From the NCBI GenBank assembly GCA_046760705.1, contig JBHIER010000263.1, forward strand, positions 1 to 5,183: DNA of 5,183 nt, written 5' to 3'. The notes below the pieces were generated by a model that saw nothing but the letters and a program-made list of their open reading frames with translations, was not told the origin of the DNA and did no database searches. This DNA comes from JBHIER01 sp046760705 [NCBI: bacterium]. Its GTDB lineage: Bacteria; JBHIER01; G020348925. The translations under genes and the position numbers were made by a program. Shown piece after piece: positions 1-5,183 of this stretch (positions are counted from its first letter, which is position 1; the number at the start of each line of letters is the position of its first letter).

Positions 1-410
1 CCACACTTCAAGTCAAATCTCTCCTTATATAGCCCAACTCTTTCAAGATTTCTCTCGGCCATTGCAGGATAGGCTCCAGCCGTATATGTATCATTGTCAA
101 TACAGATCAATCTGCCTTTTCTGTTCTCCTTCAAGGCCCTTGCCCATCCAACAGCCGTCCCACCAGCGTATGTCCCAACTTCAACGATGATATTTGGTTT
201 GTAAAACTTAGCGAATGCATATACCCACCTCCCATACCGGGGATGGTCCTTACCCCGACCAACTTTCAAATGGCCCGGGCCCCGGAAATCCGGGAGAGGA
301 TCTTCAACTGAAGAGAGGAAGCAGTCGAACAACCCTTCGTCTAACCTTAATGGACCGTCGACGCCTCTGACTGCGAAATATCGTAAGTAAGTATTCCCAA
401 AGAGTCCCAT
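1..410 (-). CDS. Class I SAM-dependent methyltransferase, N-terminal part (cut by window edge)
   Basis: An open frame runs from ATG at 410 to the left edge without a stop, giving 136 codons; the C-terminus lies outside. Residues 74-88 (IIVEVGTYAGGTAVG) form the glycine-rich motif I of Rossmann-fold SAM methyltransferases. LICIDND (101-107) follows as the second beta strand, whose acidic end (about D105) usually binds the SAM ribose. The region between, with ALKENRKGR, fits the usual O-methyltransferase / CmcI-like layout. The substrate cannot be told; small-molecule or sugar O-methylation is a guess. The start is uncertain: no clear Shine-Dalgarno precedes 410, and the frame stays open upstream through GTG 467 and ATG 497, which would overlap the end of the mutase gene. 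By hand count 65 of 136 third positions are G or C, and six AGA arginine codons occur, unlike the neighbouring mutase, so the gene may have a separate origin. Confidence 0.85.
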   Translation of the reverse strand, partial: MGLFGNTYLRYFAVRGVDGPLRLDEGLFDCFLSSVEDPLPDFRGPGHLKVGRGKDHPRYGRWVYAFAKFYKPNIIVEVGTYAGGTAVGWARALKENRKGRLICIDNDTYTAGAYPAMAERNLERVGLYKERFDLKC

Positions 411-447
411 AGGATGACAGGGTTTCTCAGAGAGACCGTCTCTATAG

Positions 448-2100
448 TTAGAATATCGGCGGTTCACGATATTCGCCGAACACCTCTCGCAACACATCGC
501 AGATTTCACCCAGGGTGGCGTAGACCCTGGCGGCATCCAGGATTTTCGGCATGAGATTGTCACCACCCCTGGCCGCCCTGCGCAGCTCTTCCAACCTCTC
601 TTTGACCGCTCCGTTGTCCCTCTCGGCCTTGAGCCGTTTCACGCGGTTCACCTGCTCCTCTTCGATCTTGGGATCGATCCGCAGGATGGGAATATCGATC
701 TCCTCATCCTCCTCGATGAAGTCGTTCACCCCCACAATGATCCGTTTCTCCTCTTCGATCTCCCGCTGATAGCGATAGGCGGCGTTGGCAATCTCTCTCT
801 GGAAAAAGCCTTTTTCGATGGCCTTGATGACCCCGCCTAAGGCTTCGATCTTTTCGAAATAGGTTTCGGCCTGTTCTTCGAGGGAGTTGGTCAGAGACTC
901 CACAAAGTAGGAGCCGGCCAGCGGATCGATGGTGTTGGCCACACCGCTTTCGTAGGCGATGATCTGCTGGGTCCGCAGGGCGATCTTGGCCGCTTTGGCT
1001 GAGGGCAAGGCATGCGTCTCATCCATGGAGTTGGTGTGTAAGGATTGGGTTCCACCCAACACCGCGGCCAGCCCCTCAAAGGCCGTTCTGACGATGTTGT
1101 TCTCCGGTTGCTGGGCCGTTAGAGAGCATCCGGCCGTCTGAGTGTGGAACCGCATCAGCCACGAGCGTGGGTCTTTCGCCTTATACTTCTCCTTCATGCG
1201 TCTGGCCCAGATCCGTCTGGCAGCCCGATATTTGGCAATCTCTTCGAAGAAGTCCAGGTGTGAATTGAAGAAAAAGGAGAGCCTCGGGGCGAAGGTGTCC
1301 ACATCCATGCCGGCGGCTACGCCGGCCTCAACGTAGGCAAATCCGTCGGCCAGGGTGAAAGCCAGCTCCTGGGCGGCTGTTGAGCCGGCCTCCCGAATGT
1401 GGTAGCCACTAATAGATATGGTGTTCCACTTGGGAACGTGGTCAGCAGCAAAGGCCATGACATCGGTGATGATGCGCATGGAGGGCTCAGGCGGAAAGAT
1501 CCACGACTTCTGGGCAATGTACTCCTTCAGGATGTCGTTCTGGATCGTCCCGCTGAGCTCTGTGGATGGGACCCCCTGTTTCTCGCCAGCGCAGATGTAA
1601 AAGGCCCAGAGCATGGCGGCCGGGCCGTTGATGGTCATGGAGGTGCTCACCTTATCCAAAGGGATACCATCAAATAGGGTCTCCATGTCGGCCAAGGATG
1701 AGACGGCCACCCCACACCGGCCCACCTCCCCCCTGGCCCGAGGATGGTCCGAACTGTAACCCATAATGGTCGGCATATCGAAGGCGACGGACAGACCGGT
1801 CTGCCCCCGGGCCAACAGAAAATGGTACCGCTCGTTCGACTCCTTCGCCGTGGCAAACCCAGAGAACTGGCGCATAGTCCACAACTGGCCCCGATACATC
1901 GTCTTATACACACCTCGAGTGAAGGGGTACTTCCCCGGATACCCCAGATCCCGCTCGTAATCCAGACCTTTGACATCATCAGGGGTGTACAGCTCCTTGA
2001 CCGGTTCGCCAGAGATGGTCGTAAACTGGCGCTCCCTCTTCTTCGACTCGATCTTAAGCAGTGGTTTCTTCCTTTGCACCGATTCTGAGGCCTTCGACAT
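448..2100 (-). CDS. Coenzyme-B12 acyl-CoA mutase large subunit, methylmalonyl-CoA mutase family, isobutyryl-CoA mutase (IcmA)-like
   Basis: This 550-residue protein covers the substrate-binding TIM-barrel part of the methylmalonyl-CoA mutase family and stops before the cobalamin-binding domain, so it should pair with a separate small subunit of about 130-140 residues. Family landmarks are YPFTRGVY (58-65), WTMRQFSGF (74-82), [10 protein letters not shown] (102-111), [11 protein letters not shown] (184-194), SISGYH (229-234, with catalytic-type His234), APRLSFFF (271-278), HTQTAG (319-324) and [11 protein letters not shown] (351-361). The family carries out adenosylcobalamin radical rearrangement of acyl-CoA thioesters in the cytoplasm. 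MutB Tyr89 and Arg207, which hold the methylmalonyl/succinyl carboxylate, align with Phe79 and Gln197 (YIAQKSWIF) here, matching Streptomyces IcmA Phe80/Gln198 as I recall them. I therefore infer a non-carboxylated substrate such as isobutyryl-/butyryl-CoA, or a related branched acyl-CoA. The length is close to IcmA (about 566). The start is supported by a strong ribosome binding site, and meaB lies just upstream. Confidence 0.95.
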
Positions 2101-2177: not shown

Positions 2178-3158
2178 TTACGGGTCTATCGAATTGGCCG
2201 CCTTCAAAATCTCCTCGGCGGCCGAATGGGGTGTCCCCCTTCCGGCAACGATCTCATCGACCCTCTTTTTCAACAACTCATCGATTTTCGAATTGTTCCA
2301 CACCCTGGCGTGGAGCCTCTCTTCAACGATTCCTACGACCGCCGCCTTAACTCGTCTCCGACGGTTCTCCGCCAGTCTATCTCTGGACTTCAGAAACTGG
2401 TGGTGTCGATCAATGGTCTGTCTCAACTCCTCAATACCGTGCCCGTCGTTGGCGATCGTTTTCAGAACCGGGGCTCTCCATCCCTCCTTGTCCGGGATCA
2501 TCTCCAGGATGGTTTCGATCTCTCTGACTGCATTGTCGGCCCCCTCCCGATCGGCCTTGTTCACCACGAAAACATCCCCAATCTCCATGAGTCCGGCCTT
2601 CATCGCCTGAACACTGTCCCCCGATTCGGGTACCAGGACCACAACGGTCGTGTCGGTCGTCTCGACCACATCCAGTTCCGACTGGCCCACCCCGACCGTC
2701 TCAAAAATGATTACGTCCTTACCGAAGGCATCGAGCACGTCTGCCACCTCACTGGTTGCCCTGGCCAACCCTCCCAAGCTTCCGCGCGTGGCCATGCTCC
2801 GGATGAAGACCCCTTCGTCCGTACCGATATTCGTCATCCGCACCCGATCTCCCAAGAGGGCTCCTCCGGTGAAGGGGCTGGTGGGATCGACGGCGATGAT
2901 GCCCACAGTGAGACGCTCCTTGCGCAGAGCTGAAGTCAGTCTGTCGACCAGAGTGCTTTTGCCAACCCCCGGTGGACCGGTGACGCCTATCTTGGAAGCT
3001 TTCCCTGTGTGGGGGAAAATCTCCCTGACGATCTCCGAGCTTTCCGCTGAATCCTGCTCGACCATGGAGATCAGCCTGGCCGCGGCCAATCGGTCTCCCT
3101 GGAGCAATCTTGAGACCAACTCAGTCGTCCGTTGCTTTTTGAAGGGACAAGATACCAT
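2178..3158 (-). CDS. meaB: MeaB/ArgK-type GTPase, G-protein chaperone of B12-dependent acyl-CoA mutase
   Basis: This 326-residue P-loop GTPase of the SIMIBI class has the usual MeaB length (about 310-335). Numbering from ATG 3158: a helical N-terminal extension (1-55), Walker A GPPGVGKST (61-69), the signature VDPTSPFTGGALLGDRVRM (90-108) with Mg/switch I acidic residues, the switch II/Walker B equivalent ETVGVGQSE (153-161), the MeaB-specific switch III loop around VPESGDSVQAMK (176-187), the guanine-specifying NKAD (200-203), and a charged helical C-terminal dimerisation arm (about 255-326). MeaB proteins bind the mutase, gate delivery of adenosylcobalamin, and release damaged cofactor using GTP. 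The mutase 77 nt downstream is the evident client. A GTG at 3161 directly before the ATG is an alternative start adding one residue. AGGG at 3167-3170 lies 8 nt from the ATG. ArgK, the older name for this family, came from a proposed arginine-transport kinase role now considered mistaken. Confidence 0.95.
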   Translation of the reverse strand: MVSCPFKKQRTTELVSRLLQGDRLAAARLISMVEQDSAESSEIVREIFPHTGKASKIGVTGPPGVGKSTLVDRLTSALRKERLTVGIIAVDPTSPFTGGALLGDRVRMTNIGTDEGVFIRSMATRGSLGGLARATSEVADVLDAFGKDVIIFETVGVGQSELDVVETTDTTVVVLVPESGDSVQAMKAGLMEIGDVFVVNKADREGADNAVREIETILEMIPDKEGWRAPVLKTIANDGHGIEELRQTIDRHHQFLKSRDRLAENRRRRVKAAVVGIVEERLHARVWNNSKIDELLKKRVDEIVAGRGTPHSAAEEILKAANSIDP

Positions 3159-3349
3159 CACTCACGCCCTGGGGAAACCCGGTTGATCCTCTGCCCTCGC
3201 CCAAGGAAGCTCAGTGTACCCCCCATGGCCGAATCTCCGGGCATATTTTCTCCACCACCCACCTTTGTAGTCCCAAGCAGAACCAATCGACCTTCCAACA
3301 TCCTAAAATAGAACGACATCACGGATAAGACAACCAAAATTTGATTCAT
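3158..3349 (-). CDS. Doubtful small ORF, 63 codons, overlapping the meaB start
   Basis: An open frame fills the space between the membrane protein gene and meaB. From ATG 3349 it encodes 63 residues; an ATG at 3385 would give 75 and overlap the preceding gene. The start is followed by a hydrophobic stretch (ILVVLSVMSFYF, about residues 4-15), then a glycine-rich, uncharged middle and a basic end. Its TGA shares a base with the meaB ATG (TGATG), an arrangement typical of translational coupling. Against it: I recognise no family, no well-placed Shine-Dalgarno precedes 3349, and G/C at third positions (about 35 of 63 by hand) is below the neighbouring mutase. It may be a real small membrane peptide, a leader frame feeding ribosomes to meaB, or chance. 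Confidence 0.25.
   Translation of the reverse strand: MNQILVVLSVMSFYFRMLEGRLVLLGTTKVGGGENMPGDSAMGGTLSFLGRGQRINRVSPGRE
3167..3170 (-). promoter_or_regulatory. Ribosome binding site of meaB
   Basis: AGGG on the minus strand lies 8 nt before ATG 3158 and 5 nt before GTG 3161. The spacing favours the ATG, although both are usable. Confidence 0.45.
3305..3333 (-). promoter_or_regulatory. Weak sigma-70-like promoter candidate before meaB
   Basis: On the minus strand TTGTCT (3333-3328) is followed after exactly 17 nt by TATTTT (3310-3305), four of six matches to each sigma-70 consensus hexamer. It lies in the most A+T-rich part of the spacer and would start a transcript about 140 nt before meaB. 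Such matches are common by chance, and the sigma factors of this organism are unknown. Confidence 0.2.
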
Positions 3350-3359
3350 CCCATCTGTG

Positions 3360-3396
3360 CTCCCTTCAGTTATCGTCTCCTCCATCTGAGGGAGAC
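3360..3396 (-). repeat. Overlapping inverted repeats spanning the stop codon of the membrane protein gene
   Basis: On the minus strand the arm CTCCCTCAG (3394-3386) can pair with CTGAAGGGAG (3369-3360) with a single bulge and a 16-nt loop containing the TAA stop. The overlapping arm GTCTCC (3396-3391) can instead pair with GGAGAC (3380-3375), and TC/GA extends that stem past one bulged base. The two hairpins exclude each other. No run of T follows, so this is not a standard intrinsic terminator. Confidence 0.4.
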
Positions 3397-5183
3397 AATC
3401 CCACCTGTGGCAGAGGCTCCCCTTAAAGTCATGTTCTCCCCCTGCAACTGATACGATAACACATTTCGGCCCGCCCCGAAGAGATAGTAGTAATCGAGCC
3501 CTGAGGGCTCCTGGCGAATTACGTTGAAGGCAATGCTGGAATCGAAAACCGAGTATGTCCCGAATTCCACGATCGAAAATCTCTGGCCGTCTTGATCTTT
3601 GAAACCGGGATTGGTGAGAACAAAGGCGCTATCACTCTCCAACTGCAAGATGGACCCGGTGAAGGTGGAATCGATGTCCAGATCATCGGATCCCTCAAAC
3701 TCGTACTCCCCGACCGGGGAGGAGAACAAGCGCTCCAAAGCTGCCTTCACCTTTTCAGCGGACGGCCCCTCGGAATTGAAGATGAGCACCTGTCGATACG
3801 CTGAGATTGCTTTGGAATTGAGTCTCTCCTGTTCAAAAATCTTCCCCATCAGGTTCCAGGCATCGACCAGAGAAGGGCAGACCGATATACTGTTCCGCAG
3901 AAGTCGTATTGCTGCCTCGTAGCGCCCCTGCTCAAAGGCCTCGATCCCTGAATAATAGAGGTAGGAGGCGAAGCTGATTTCTTCCCCGAACTTTTTCGCC
4001 GTATCGATCTCCTTGACTACATATCTGGGATCGAAGATGGGTTGATAGTCCACCGCCCAATCGTCCTTGACCTCACCCTCTTCGAGAACCTCGTAGACCC
4101 GAAAACAGTCATTCTGATACCGGAGGCCAAAACGGCTCAGTCGTTCCGGATAGAAGTGGGCATCATAGACGAAGGACTCTGGATTGACGGCCAATCGGTC
4201 GGCAAGATACCTGGTGCCAACAATCGAGTAGTCGAGGAAGAATCTGGCCGAATAGACGAAGTAGTCCACGTCGTATTGCCGACAGTAGTTGTAAAATATC
4301 TCCTCATCACTGTACAGGGCGGAGGCAAACTCAGTGATCTTTTTGCGCATGCGGGCGTCTTCGAAAAATGTGTGCAGAACCGTCGTTCTGTCGGCATAAG
4401 GCAGCAGTTCGGCCGAAATGTGCCAATAGCTCAACAGCACGCTCTGGGGCGAGGTGTTCTCTCTGATCCAGTGAATGAGATCGCTCATATTGGTCACATT
4501 CTCCAAGAAGAGCTCCTCCTGATGAGGCCGAATCTTTAGGGTAGTGAGCACTCGAAGGGGGTCCCAATTGTCCACCACTTGAGCCACTTGATGAACACCC
4601 ACCAACCCGACGGCCACATACACAAAAGCCCTGGTCTTGAATCTGGCCAGGGTCAGATCGATGGTCCGACCGATGAAGATGGCCAGAAAGAAGATGAAGA
4701 AGACATGGAGCCGGGAGAAGAAGAGATAGCTGACGAGGGTGGCGAAAAATAAGTAGAGGAGGAGTTGCTCCCCCGCCGAACCCCTCCGCCGCAACAAGTC
4801 CCAAACGGAGCGGCCGACACCGTAAACCCCAGCCAGAAGGGGAAGAGAAAAGTAGGCCAAGAAGTTGTACAGGGAGGGATGGGTGTACCCCGGCACCCAA
4901 TAGAGCCGAGCCTCAAGAGGCAGAAGAGACGGATCTTGAGGATGTCGGAAGAGAAAGAGGATCTGGTACAGGGTCGTATAGTAGACGTGGCCGAAGCGAC
5001 CGGTATGGGGTAGAAAGAGATAGAAAACACCAAAAGTGCCTACTAAGATGGCCGCTCTGGGAAACCATCGTCGAACTGGCCTCACGAACCGGTCTATGAG
5101 TTCCAAAAGGGCCATGCCGTAAAAGAGCATCATGGGCAACGATGTCAGGAACAGGTCGGCTCTCAGGTGGGGAACGATCAAAC
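3370..5183 (-). CDS. Large membrane protein with TPR repeats and C-terminal beta domain, possibly GT-C glycosyltransferase-like (5' end cut by window edge)
   Basis: The frame is open to the right edge, so the true start lies outside; the first codon that could serve as a start is a TTG at 5181, unlikely to be the real one. Counting from there (603 residues to TAA at 3370), hydrophobic segments lie near 12-29, 42-57, 105-122, 139-154, 157-173 and 186-202. A soluble domain of about 205-395 follows, containing SYWHISAELLPYADRTTVLH (251-270) and a YDVDYFVY strand (303-310). Two TPR-like helical pairs come next (about 404-437 and 438-471), with characteristic GRYEAAIRLL and SKAISAYRQVL. The last 110 residues are beta-rich, ending LSYQLQGENMTLR (575-587), which resembles lipocalin-like barrels. 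Multi-span membrane cores followed by an extracytoplasmic domain occur in GT-C glycosyltransferases of the PMT/STT3 kind, and the soluble region loosely recalls STT3, but no WWDYG motif is present. The function is therefore uncertain. Lipid-linked sugar transfer or surface-polymer assembly is inference. Confidence 0.85.
   Translation of the reverse strand, partial: LIVPHLRADLFLTSLPMMLFYGMALLELIDRFVRPVRRWFPRAAILVGTFGVFYLFLPHTGRFGHVYYTTLYQILFLFRHPQDPSLLPLEARLYWVPGYTHPSLYNFLAYFSLPLLAGVYGVGRSVWDLLRRRGSAGEQLLLYLFFATLVSYLFFSRLHVFFIFFLAIFIGRTIDLTLARFKTRAFVYVAVGLVGVHQVAQVVDNWDPLRVLTTLKIRPHQEELFLENVTNMSDLIHWIRENTSPQSVLLSYWHISAELLPYADRTTVLHTFFEDARMRKKITEFASALYSDEEIFYNYCRQYDVDYFVYSARFFLDYSIVGTRYLADRLAVNPESFVYDAHFYPERLSRFGLRYQNDCFRVYEVLEEGEVKDDWAVDYQPIFDPRYVVKEIDTAKKFGEEISFASYLYYSGIEAFEQGRYEAAIRLLRNSISVCPSLVDAWNLMGKIFEQERLNSKAISAYRQVLIFNSEGPSAEKVKAALERLFSSPVGEYEFEGSDDLDIDSTFTGSILQLESDSAFVLTNPGFKDQDGQRFSIVEFGTYSVFDSSIAFNVIRQEPSGLDYYYLFGAGRNVLSYQLQGENMTLRGASATGGIVSLRWRRR

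What the first reader, a model, noticed from the sequence alone, without database searches (positions are those of the whole stretch)
1485..1870. Mutase active site carries the isobutyryl-CoA mutase residues, not those of methylmalonyl-CoA mutase
Phe79 (in RQFSGF) replaces the MutB Tyr89, and Gln197 (in YIAQKSW) replaces Arg207, the pair that anchors the substrate carboxylate. Streptomyces IcmA has Phe and Gln at these positions, and its surrounding YIAQK-W-F context and C-terminal GEIC-VLR pattern also match as I recall it. The enzyme should favour isobutyryl-/butyryl-CoA or another branched, non-carboxylated acyl-CoA, so an automatic annotation of methylmalonyl-CoA mutase would mislead pathway reconstruction. 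A Phe/Gln pair does not separate isobutyryl- from pivalyl-CoA-type substrates.
Basis: partly seen in the sequence, partly recalled or inferred. Interest (0 to 1): 0.6.

Follow-up and report, generated by a model that had tools for sequence, protein, structure and literature searches.

The report
Isobutyryl-CoA mutase labelled as methylmalonyl-CoA mutase
This vitamin-B12 enzyme would be named methylmalonyl-CoA mutase by automatic tools, but its pocket residues, its family tree and the genes beside its relatives say it more likely interconverts isobutyryl-CoA and butyryl-CoA, which is a known reaction.

Summary
The 550-aa mutase (448-2100, minus strand) has Phe79 and Gln197 where solved methylmalonyl-CoA mutases have Tyr and Arg; solved isobutyryl-CoA mutase IcmF has Phe/Gln too. 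In 180 genome regions from three phyla, 215 mutase-family rows gave 82 Phe/Gln, 122 Tyr/Arg, 11 others and no mixture. A third column (Ile112) separates the classes equally well. With the two columns removed, the window still falls in the Phe/Gln clade; grouping it with Tyr/Arg rows is rejected (p-AU 0.00075; control 0.56). Methylmalonyl-CoA epimerase lies within 2.5 kb of 96 of 122 Tyr/Arg genes and 0 of 82 Phe/Gln genes; acyl-CoA dehydrogenase near 3 of 122 and 45 of 82, but near 0 of 16 Asgard Phe/Gln genes. The closest relative's genome holds both types, the Tyr/Arg one beside an epimerase. Best reading: large subunit of a split isobutyryl-CoA/butyryl-CoA mutase with its chaperone MeaB. 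Kinship-free statistics, enzyme activity and the isobutyryl-versus-pivalyl question are not settled; the B12-binding subunit is not in the window. The residue rule is already published: a new member of a known kind.

The parts
448..2100 (-). acyl-CoA mutase large (substrate-binding) subunit, 550 aa, IcmA type
   Evidence: Pfam PF01642 7.4e-233 and NCBIfam TIGR00641; solved relatives 4r3u, 2xij, 1req, 4xc6; tree position
1864..1866 (-). codon TTC, Phe79, at the place of methylmalonyl-CoA mutase Tyr89
1510..1512 (-). codon CAG, Gln197, at the place of methylmalonyl-CoA mutase Arg207
1765..1767 (-). codon ATT, Ile112: third column that separates the classes (Leu/Ile in the 156 Phe/Gln rows, Gln/His in the 127 Tyr/Arg rows compared)
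1783..1785 (-). codon GCC, Ala106, where HcmA has Asp; argues against 2-hydroxyisobutyryl-CoA as substrate
1399..1401 (-). codon CAC, His234 (His244 in recalled methylmalonyl-CoA mutase numbering), invariant in both classes where a letter is present (156 and 127 rows)
2178..3161 (-). MeaB-type GTPase chaperone, 327 aa, 77 bases upstream of the mutase on the same strand
   Evidence: Pfam MeaB 2.4e-92, NCBIfam TIGR00750 349 bits over cut-off 241
3370..5181 (-). membrane protein with Dpy19-like and TPR matches, upstream neighbour near the window end; same neighbour in L001
   Evidence: Pfam Dpy19 1.4e-8 and TPR; 848 bits to L001:2108-4729
3..447 (-). downstream ORF with a methyltransferase-like match, cut by the window end; stands where L001 has the B12-binding subunit
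   Evidence: Pfam Methyltransf_24 9.3e-6 on the open frame 3-566; L001 gene order; start codon not determined, the open frame overlaps the mutase end

Best explanation
The gene encodes the large, substrate-binding subunit of a two-subunit adenosylcobalamin-dependent isobutyryl-CoA mutase (IcmA type). With a separate small B12-binding subunit, which must be encoded outside the window, it would move the carbonyl-CoA group between neighbouring carbons by a radical mechanism and so interconvert isobutyryl-CoA and n-butyryl-CoA. Phe79 and Gln197 (with Ile112) stand where methylmalonyl-CoA mutase holds the free carboxylate with Tyr and Arg, so the pocket suits a methyl group. The adjacent MeaB GTPase would load and protect the cofactor. 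In relatives it may link valine-derived or environmental isobutyrate to butyryl-CoA oxidation. Shown here: the residues, the clade, the neighbours. Inferred: the pocket geometry, the reaction, the direction, the partner subunit.
For: Residues: Phe/Gln as in solved IcmF; no mixed pair among 215 rows; Ile112 agrees. Trees without the two trait columns: window in an all-Phe/Gln set, 24 rows at 99/91, 25 rows at SH-aLRT 95; union with Tyr/Arg rows rejected, p-AU 0.00075, while the Tyr/Arg rows alone give 0.563. Context in the drawn genomes, same strand within 2.5 kb: epimerase 0 of 82 Phe/Gln versus 96 of 122 Tyr/Arg; carboxylase 7 of 82 versus 65 of 122; acyl-CoA dehydrogenase 45 of 82 versus 3 of 122. 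Some near relatives (L002, L005, L018) sit with thiolase, acyl-CoA dehydrogenase, adenosyltransferase, MeaB and B12 subunit, two of them also with 3-hydroxybutyryl-CoA dehydrogenase. The closest genome G001 holds both classes: the Tyr/Arg gene is next to an epimerase, the Phe/Gln gene next to B12 subunit and MeaB. Strain TGB-C1, reported to isomerise isobutyrate to butyrate, has a cluster of mutase N- and C-terminal proteins, adenosyltransferase and MeaB-like protein, the gene set of L002, L005 and L018 (PMC5017805, passage).
Against: The window has no acyl-CoA dehydrogenase, thiolase or B12 subunit, and the 13.6 kb around the closest relative L001 has only MeaB and the B12 subunit of the markers sought. 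Of the 76 nearest Phe/Gln relatives only 22 have acyl-CoA dehydrogenase within 2.5 kb, 9 thiolase and 9 3-hydroxybutyryl-CoA dehydrogenase (some contigs are short); in the Asgard sample 0 of 16 have the dehydrogenase. Within 5 kb, 36 of 82 Phe/Gln genes have a carboxylase on the same strand. 14 of 133 genomes showed only Phe/Gln genes among those fetched. Only 2 to 4 independent residue switches occur on the tree, so residue and context cannot be tied together statistically beyond shared ancestry. IcmF also acts on pivalyl-/isovaleryl-CoA (PMC10481361, passage). An enzyme assigned to the HcmA subclass, ActD, is proposed to act on a carboxylated substrate, hexylmalonyl-CoA (PMC5719088, passages), so subclass alone does not fix the substrate.
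Confidence: 0.75

Rival explanations
1. A mutase of the same class whose main substrate is another non-carboxylated branched acyl-CoA, such as pivalyl-/isovaleryl-CoA or 2-methylbutyryl-type esters.
For: Phe/Gln does not exclude it: IcmF is reported to act on pivalyl- and isovaleryl-CoA (PMC10481361, passage). The Phe/Gln clade is wide and its neighbours vary; most of the 76 nearest relatives lack the butyryl-CoA oxidation markers within 2.5 kb.
Against: Butyryl-CoA oxidation genes beside several near relatives and the same gene set in an isobutyrate-isomerising strain (PMC5017805, passage).
Confidence: 0.17
2. A methylmalonyl-CoA mutase, as automatic annotation says, with an unusual pocket.
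For: The NCBIfam model over cut-off is the methylmalonyl-CoA mutase N-terminal domain; whole-chain similarity to human and Propionibacterium enzymes is strong; 14 of 133 genomes showed only Phe/Gln among the genes fetched.
Against: Carboxylate-binding Tyr and Arg both absent; tree test rejects the Tyr/Arg grouping; no epimerase near 82 Phe/Gln genes; a separate Tyr/Arg gene beside an epimerase in the closest genome.
Confidence: 0.04
3. A 2-hydroxyisobutyryl-CoA mutase (HcmA type).
For: HcmA (4r3u) is the best solved match, 578 bits, shares Gln, and branches at the edge of the Phe/Gln clade.
Against: HcmA has Ile where the window has Phe79 and Asp where it has Ala106; HcmA groups with an Ile/Gln row (L165) at 100/99, apart from the window.
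Confidence: 0.04

Closest known systems
Split-type isobutyryl-CoA mutase IcmA/IcmB (Streptomyces; gene cluster of strain TGB-C1, PMC5017805, passage)
   Different: No named IcmA or TGB-C1 sequence could be compared; the B12 subunit is not in the window
Fused isobutyryl-CoA mutase IcmF (4xc6)
   Same: Phe and Gln at the two sites, Leu at the third column where the window has Ile; GTPase partner
   Different: IcmF is one chain with B12 domain and GTPase; distant in sequence (294 bits against 578 for HcmA) and on its own long branch
2-hydroxyisobutyryl-CoA mutase HcmA (4r3u)
   Same: Best solved match, 578 bits; separate large subunit; Gln at 197
   Different: Ile at 79 and Asp at 106 in HcmA; Phe and Ala here
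Methylmalonyl-CoA mutase (human 2xij, Propionibacterium 1req, split type of Ilyobacter L103)
   Same: Same family, invariant His; the split Ilyobacter protein is 61.5% identical to the window
   Different: Tyr and Arg at 79 and 197, Gln or His at 112; the Ilyobacter gene sits with epimerase and carboxylase

Membership tests
isobutyryl-CoA mutase large subunit (IcmA type) | Phe and Gln at the two substrate-specificity sites | tested here: met
   Phe79, Gln197; same pair in solved IcmF. That two specificity sites exist and are Tyr/Arg in methylmalonyl-CoA mutase: PMC7238569 citing Jost 2015, passage
isobutyryl-CoA mutase large subunit (IcmA type) | falls outside the methylmalonyl-CoA mutases on a tree | tested here: met
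   AU test and control
isobutyryl-CoA mutase large subunit (IcmA type) | groups with a biochemically proven IcmA | not testable with these tools
   no named IcmA sequence reached; Streptomyces plasmid mutases read were Tyr/Arg
isobutyryl-CoA mutase large subunit (IcmA type) | works with a separate small B12-binding subunit | tested here: inconclusive
   the chain has no B12 domain and none was found in the window; a B12 subunit is next to the mutase in L001 and within 2.5 kb of 67 of 82 Phe/Gln genes
isobutyryl-CoA mutase large subunit (IcmA type) | interconverts isobutyryl-CoA and butyryl-CoA | not testable with these tools
   needs an assay
methylmalonyl-CoA mutase | Tyr89 and Arg207 hold the substrate carboxylate | tested here: not met
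   Phe79 and Gln197
methylmalonyl-CoA mutase | usual company of methylmalonyl-CoA epimerase in related loci | tested here: not met
2-hydroxyisobutyryl-CoA mutase (HcmA) | Ile at site 79 and Asp at site 106 | tested here: not met
   Phe79, Ala106; that these two define HcmA is recalled, their presence in 4r3u is
IcmF | fusion of B12 domain, GTPase and mutase in one chain | tested here: not met
   separate 550-aa mutase and 327-aa MeaB; IcmF NCBIfam model 360 bits, cut-off 1500
pivalyl-CoA mutase | residues or activity that separate it from isobutyryl-CoA mutase | not tested
   I found no held paper or sequence that defines it (search listings)

The most novel reading that the evidence does not exclude
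The Phe/Gln clade is a widespread, mostly mislabelled branch of split acyl-CoA mutases that reaches archaea (15 of the 80 nearest loci carry archaeal record titles, 14 of them Lokiarchaeota/Lokiarchaeia or Thorarchaeota). In lineages without butyryl-CoA oxidation neighbours it may serve other non-carboxylated acyl-CoAs, so that archaea too isomerise branched short-chain acyl-CoAs.
Probability: 0.25. Interest if true: 0.5.

Novelty: new member of a known kind. Interest (0 to 1): 0.3.

Why it matters
A genome model built on the automatic label would credit this organism with a methylmalonyl-CoA/succinyl-CoA step from this gene and miss an isobutyrate-butyrate link. The two residues plus Ile112 give a simple check: all three columns separated 156 from 127 rows without exception. 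It could correct other records. The two-site rule itself is published: Jost 2015, seen only as cited in PMC7238569 (passage). Mislabelling of the fused form is reported in PMC7764203 (passage).

Tried and rejected
Own genome: none held. Rfam: no match in the window at gathering threshold. Tree-corrected test of residue against context: no power, 2 to 4 independent switches. Counter-cases: L253 is Phe/Gln but placed outside the clade, with B12 subunit, MeaB and adenosyltransferase beside it; L286 holds a Tyr/Arg gene inside the clade. Ilyobacter L103 looked like a counter-example because of its epimerase and carboxylase neighbours, but it is Tyr/Arg. Papers not held, so not read: PMC2804213, PMC3346121, PMC3281689, PMC4646380. 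Passages also read in PMC11599936, PMC6759758 and PMC9499637 without a result used here.

Rows dropped: mutase rows with 300 or fewer aligned positions were left out of the counts. The lists held more matches than the 180 regions fetched, so some places (fragments, lower-ranked Asgard and some Zixibacterial matches) were not examined, and the count of genomes with both classes is a lower bound. The draws include their own centre genomes G005 and G006 (and G007), which came from the relatives of the window. Two of the 82 Phe/Gln rows are IcmF fusions. For the trees, sequences were thinned at 72% identity (293 to 102); six small-subunit-like rows and two duplicates were removed; 57 rows were used for (13 chosen by hand, 44 at random, from a pool without IcmF, the long branches and the rows of other residue pairs, except two Ile/Gln rows chosen by hand). 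L286 was left out of the Tyr/Arg group in both AU tests after the tree had been seen.

Full report
The observation. The window holds one mutase gene on the minus strand, 448-2100, 550 aa, a full-length match to Pfam MM_CoA_mutase. Phe79 and Gln197 are encoded by TTC at 1866-1864 and CAG at 1512-1510. In the alignments to solved chains, human and Propionibacterium methylmalonyl-CoA mutase have Tyr and Arg there and HcmA has Ile and Gln; IcmF has Phe and Gln.

Is it more than chance? Of the 80 nearest relatives kept from the genome collection (114 confirmed, best 80 kept), 76 are Phe/Gln, 3 Tyr/Arg and 1 is truncated with Gln. That set is chosen by similarity, so I also drew genomes from three phyla: 101, 60 and 59 genomes, centred on Carboxydocella, a Zixibacterium and a Thorarchaeon, the centres themselves being relatives of the window. 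From the matches I fetched 180 regions. They gave 215 mutase-family rows with more than 300 aligned positions: 122 Tyr/Arg, 82 Phe/Gln, and 11 others (3 Leu/Ser, 1 Leu/Asn, 1 Ile/Gln, and 6 of 24-27% identity that look like non-catalytic small-subunit paralogues). No row mixes the pairs. A comparison of all columns over 156 Phe/Gln rows (IcmF left out) and 127 Tyr/Arg rows, from the draw and the nearest relatives together, found a third perfect separator, window Ile112: Leu or Ile against Gln or His. HcmA and IcmF have Leu there by the printed alignments.

Tree. With columns 79 and 197 removed, a quick 105-row tree places the window inside starred all-Phe/Gln sets of 25 and 28 rows. A careful 57-row tree gives an all-Phe/Gln set of 24 rows at 99/91. 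Holding the window together with the Tyr/Arg rows costs 105 log units, p-AU 0.00075. The control, the same Tyr/Arg rows without the window, is not rejected, p-AU 0.563. The stray Tyr/Arg row L286 was left out of the group in both. HcmA branches at the edge of the Phe/Gln clade. IcmF, also Phe/Gln, sits on a long separate branch, so the pair either arose more than once or is old; the tree cannot say which.

Gene context. In the drawn genomes, on the same strand within 2.5 kb: methylmalonyl-CoA epimerase beside 96 of 122 Tyr/Arg genes and 0 of 82 Phe/Gln genes; carboxylase 65 of 122 and 7 of 82; acyl-CoA dehydrogenase 3 of 122 and 45 of 82; MeaB 31 of 122 and 52 of 82; B12 subunit 57 of 122 and 67 of 82; thiolase, 3-hydroxybutyryl-CoA dehydrogenase, enoyl-CoA hydratase and CoA-transferase do not differ clearly. 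By phylum (Bacillota, Zixibacteria, Asgard), epimerase is beside 40 of 47, 41 of 47 and 15 of 28 Tyr/Arg genes, and beside 0 of 16, 0 of 48 and 0 of 16 Phe/Gln genes with the two IcmF fusions set apart; acyl-CoA dehydrogenase is beside 11 of 16, 32 of 48 and 0 of 16 Phe/Gln genes. So the dehydrogenase link fails in the Asgard sample. Among the 76 nearest Phe/Gln relatives it is present in 22, thiolase in 9 and 3-hydroxybutyryl-CoA dehydrogenase in 9 (some contigs are short). Within 5 kb a carboxylase is present for 36 of 82 Phe/Gln genes; in several Zixibacterial contigs a second mutase lies roughly 8 kb away on the same strand, which may explain part of this. Rows share ancestry: only 2 to 4 independent switches of residue occur on the tree, so the association cannot be tested free of kinship. 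Of 133 genomes with a fetched mutase, 68 hold both classes, 49 only Tyr/Arg, 14 only Phe/Gln and 2 neither; since not all matches were fetched, 68 is a lower bound.

Butyrate neighbours. The near relatives L002, L005 and L018 have thiolase, acyl-CoA dehydrogenase, adenosyltransferase, MeaB, mutase and B12 subunit on one strand; L002 and L005 also have 3-hydroxybutyryl-CoA dehydrogenase, and L005 an enoyl-CoA hydratase. [quoted passage not shown] I did not compare its sequences.

The closest relative. L001, from an assembly titled Gemmatimonadota, is 87% identical over the mutase and shares the upstream Dpy19/TPR-like membrane protein (848 bits) and MeaB (524 bits). Its genome (G001) has two mutase genes: the Phe/Gln one beside B12 subunit and MeaB, and a Tyr/Arg one directly beside an epimerase. 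Around L001 no dehydrogenase, thiolase or carboxylase marker was found in 13.6 kb. In the window, the space after the mutase is taken by a cut ORF with a methyltransferase-like match instead of the B12 subunit, so the partner subunit must lie elsewhere. No genome is held for the window itself.

How it most likely works. By family knowledge (PMC10481361, passages; PMC2847961, section 10), these enzymes use adenosylcobalamin to move the carbonyl-CoA group by a radical path; IcmF turns isobutyryl-CoA into n-butyryl-CoA. Loss of both carboxylate-holding residues suits a methyl group in the pocket. MeaB would load and protect the cofactor. The direction of flux is unknown; neighbours in some relatives suggest feeding butyryl-CoA oxidation. 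Activity, substrate range, pocket geometry and the partner subunit are inference.

What is known already. Two specificity sites in this family, Tyr and Arg in methylmalonyl-CoA mutase, were described by Jost 2015; I saw this only as cited in PMC7238569 (passage), and the paper itself is not held. Mislabelling of IcmF as methylmalonyl-CoA mutase is reported in PMC7764203 (passage). A 2009 survey joined the three mutase kinds into one group because they are quite similar (PMC2667541, passage). A search for isobutyryl-CoA mutase with archaea listed 17 papers, of which I read passages in five; I make no claim that archaeal members are unreported.

Noticed in passing
window 1765-1767 (Ile112): A third column separates the two classes without exception: Leu/Ile in 156 Phe/Gln rows, Gln/His in 127 Tyr/Arg rows.
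   Followed up: yes
window 3-447, minus strand: A methyltransferase-like ORF stands where the closest relative L001 has the B12-binding subunit, so the subunit is separated from the mutase here.
   Followed up: partly
L030, L034, L039, L050, L053-L055, L058-L062, L064, L068 (archaeal titles): Lokiarchaeota and Thorarchaeota assemblies carry Phe/Gln mutases 61-64% identical to the window. In the Asgard draw, 8 of 16 Phe/Gln genes have adenosyltransferase, 8 a B12 subunit and 8 MeaB within 2.5 kb, and 0 acyl-CoA dehydrogenase.
   Followed up: partly
L286:18049-19725: A Tyr/Arg mutase placed inside the Phe/Gln clade, a possible return to the methylmalonyl type; the fetched region ends there, so its downstream context was not seen.
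   Followed up: partly
L253:7250-8959: A Phe/Gln mutase placed outside the Phe/Gln clade, with B12 subunit, MeaB and adenosyltransferase beside it.
   Followed up: partly
L170, L171, L172 (Leu/Ser), L173 (Leu/Asn), L290 (Ile/Ser), L098 (Val/Cys), L096 (Phe/Tyr): Mutases with other residue pairs at the two sites, of unassigned substrate; possibly other specificities.
   Followed up: no
   Followed up: no
window 3370-5181, minus strand: Large membrane protein with Dpy19-like and TPR matches, perhaps a glycosyltransferase, conserved upstream of MeaB in L001.
   Followed up: no
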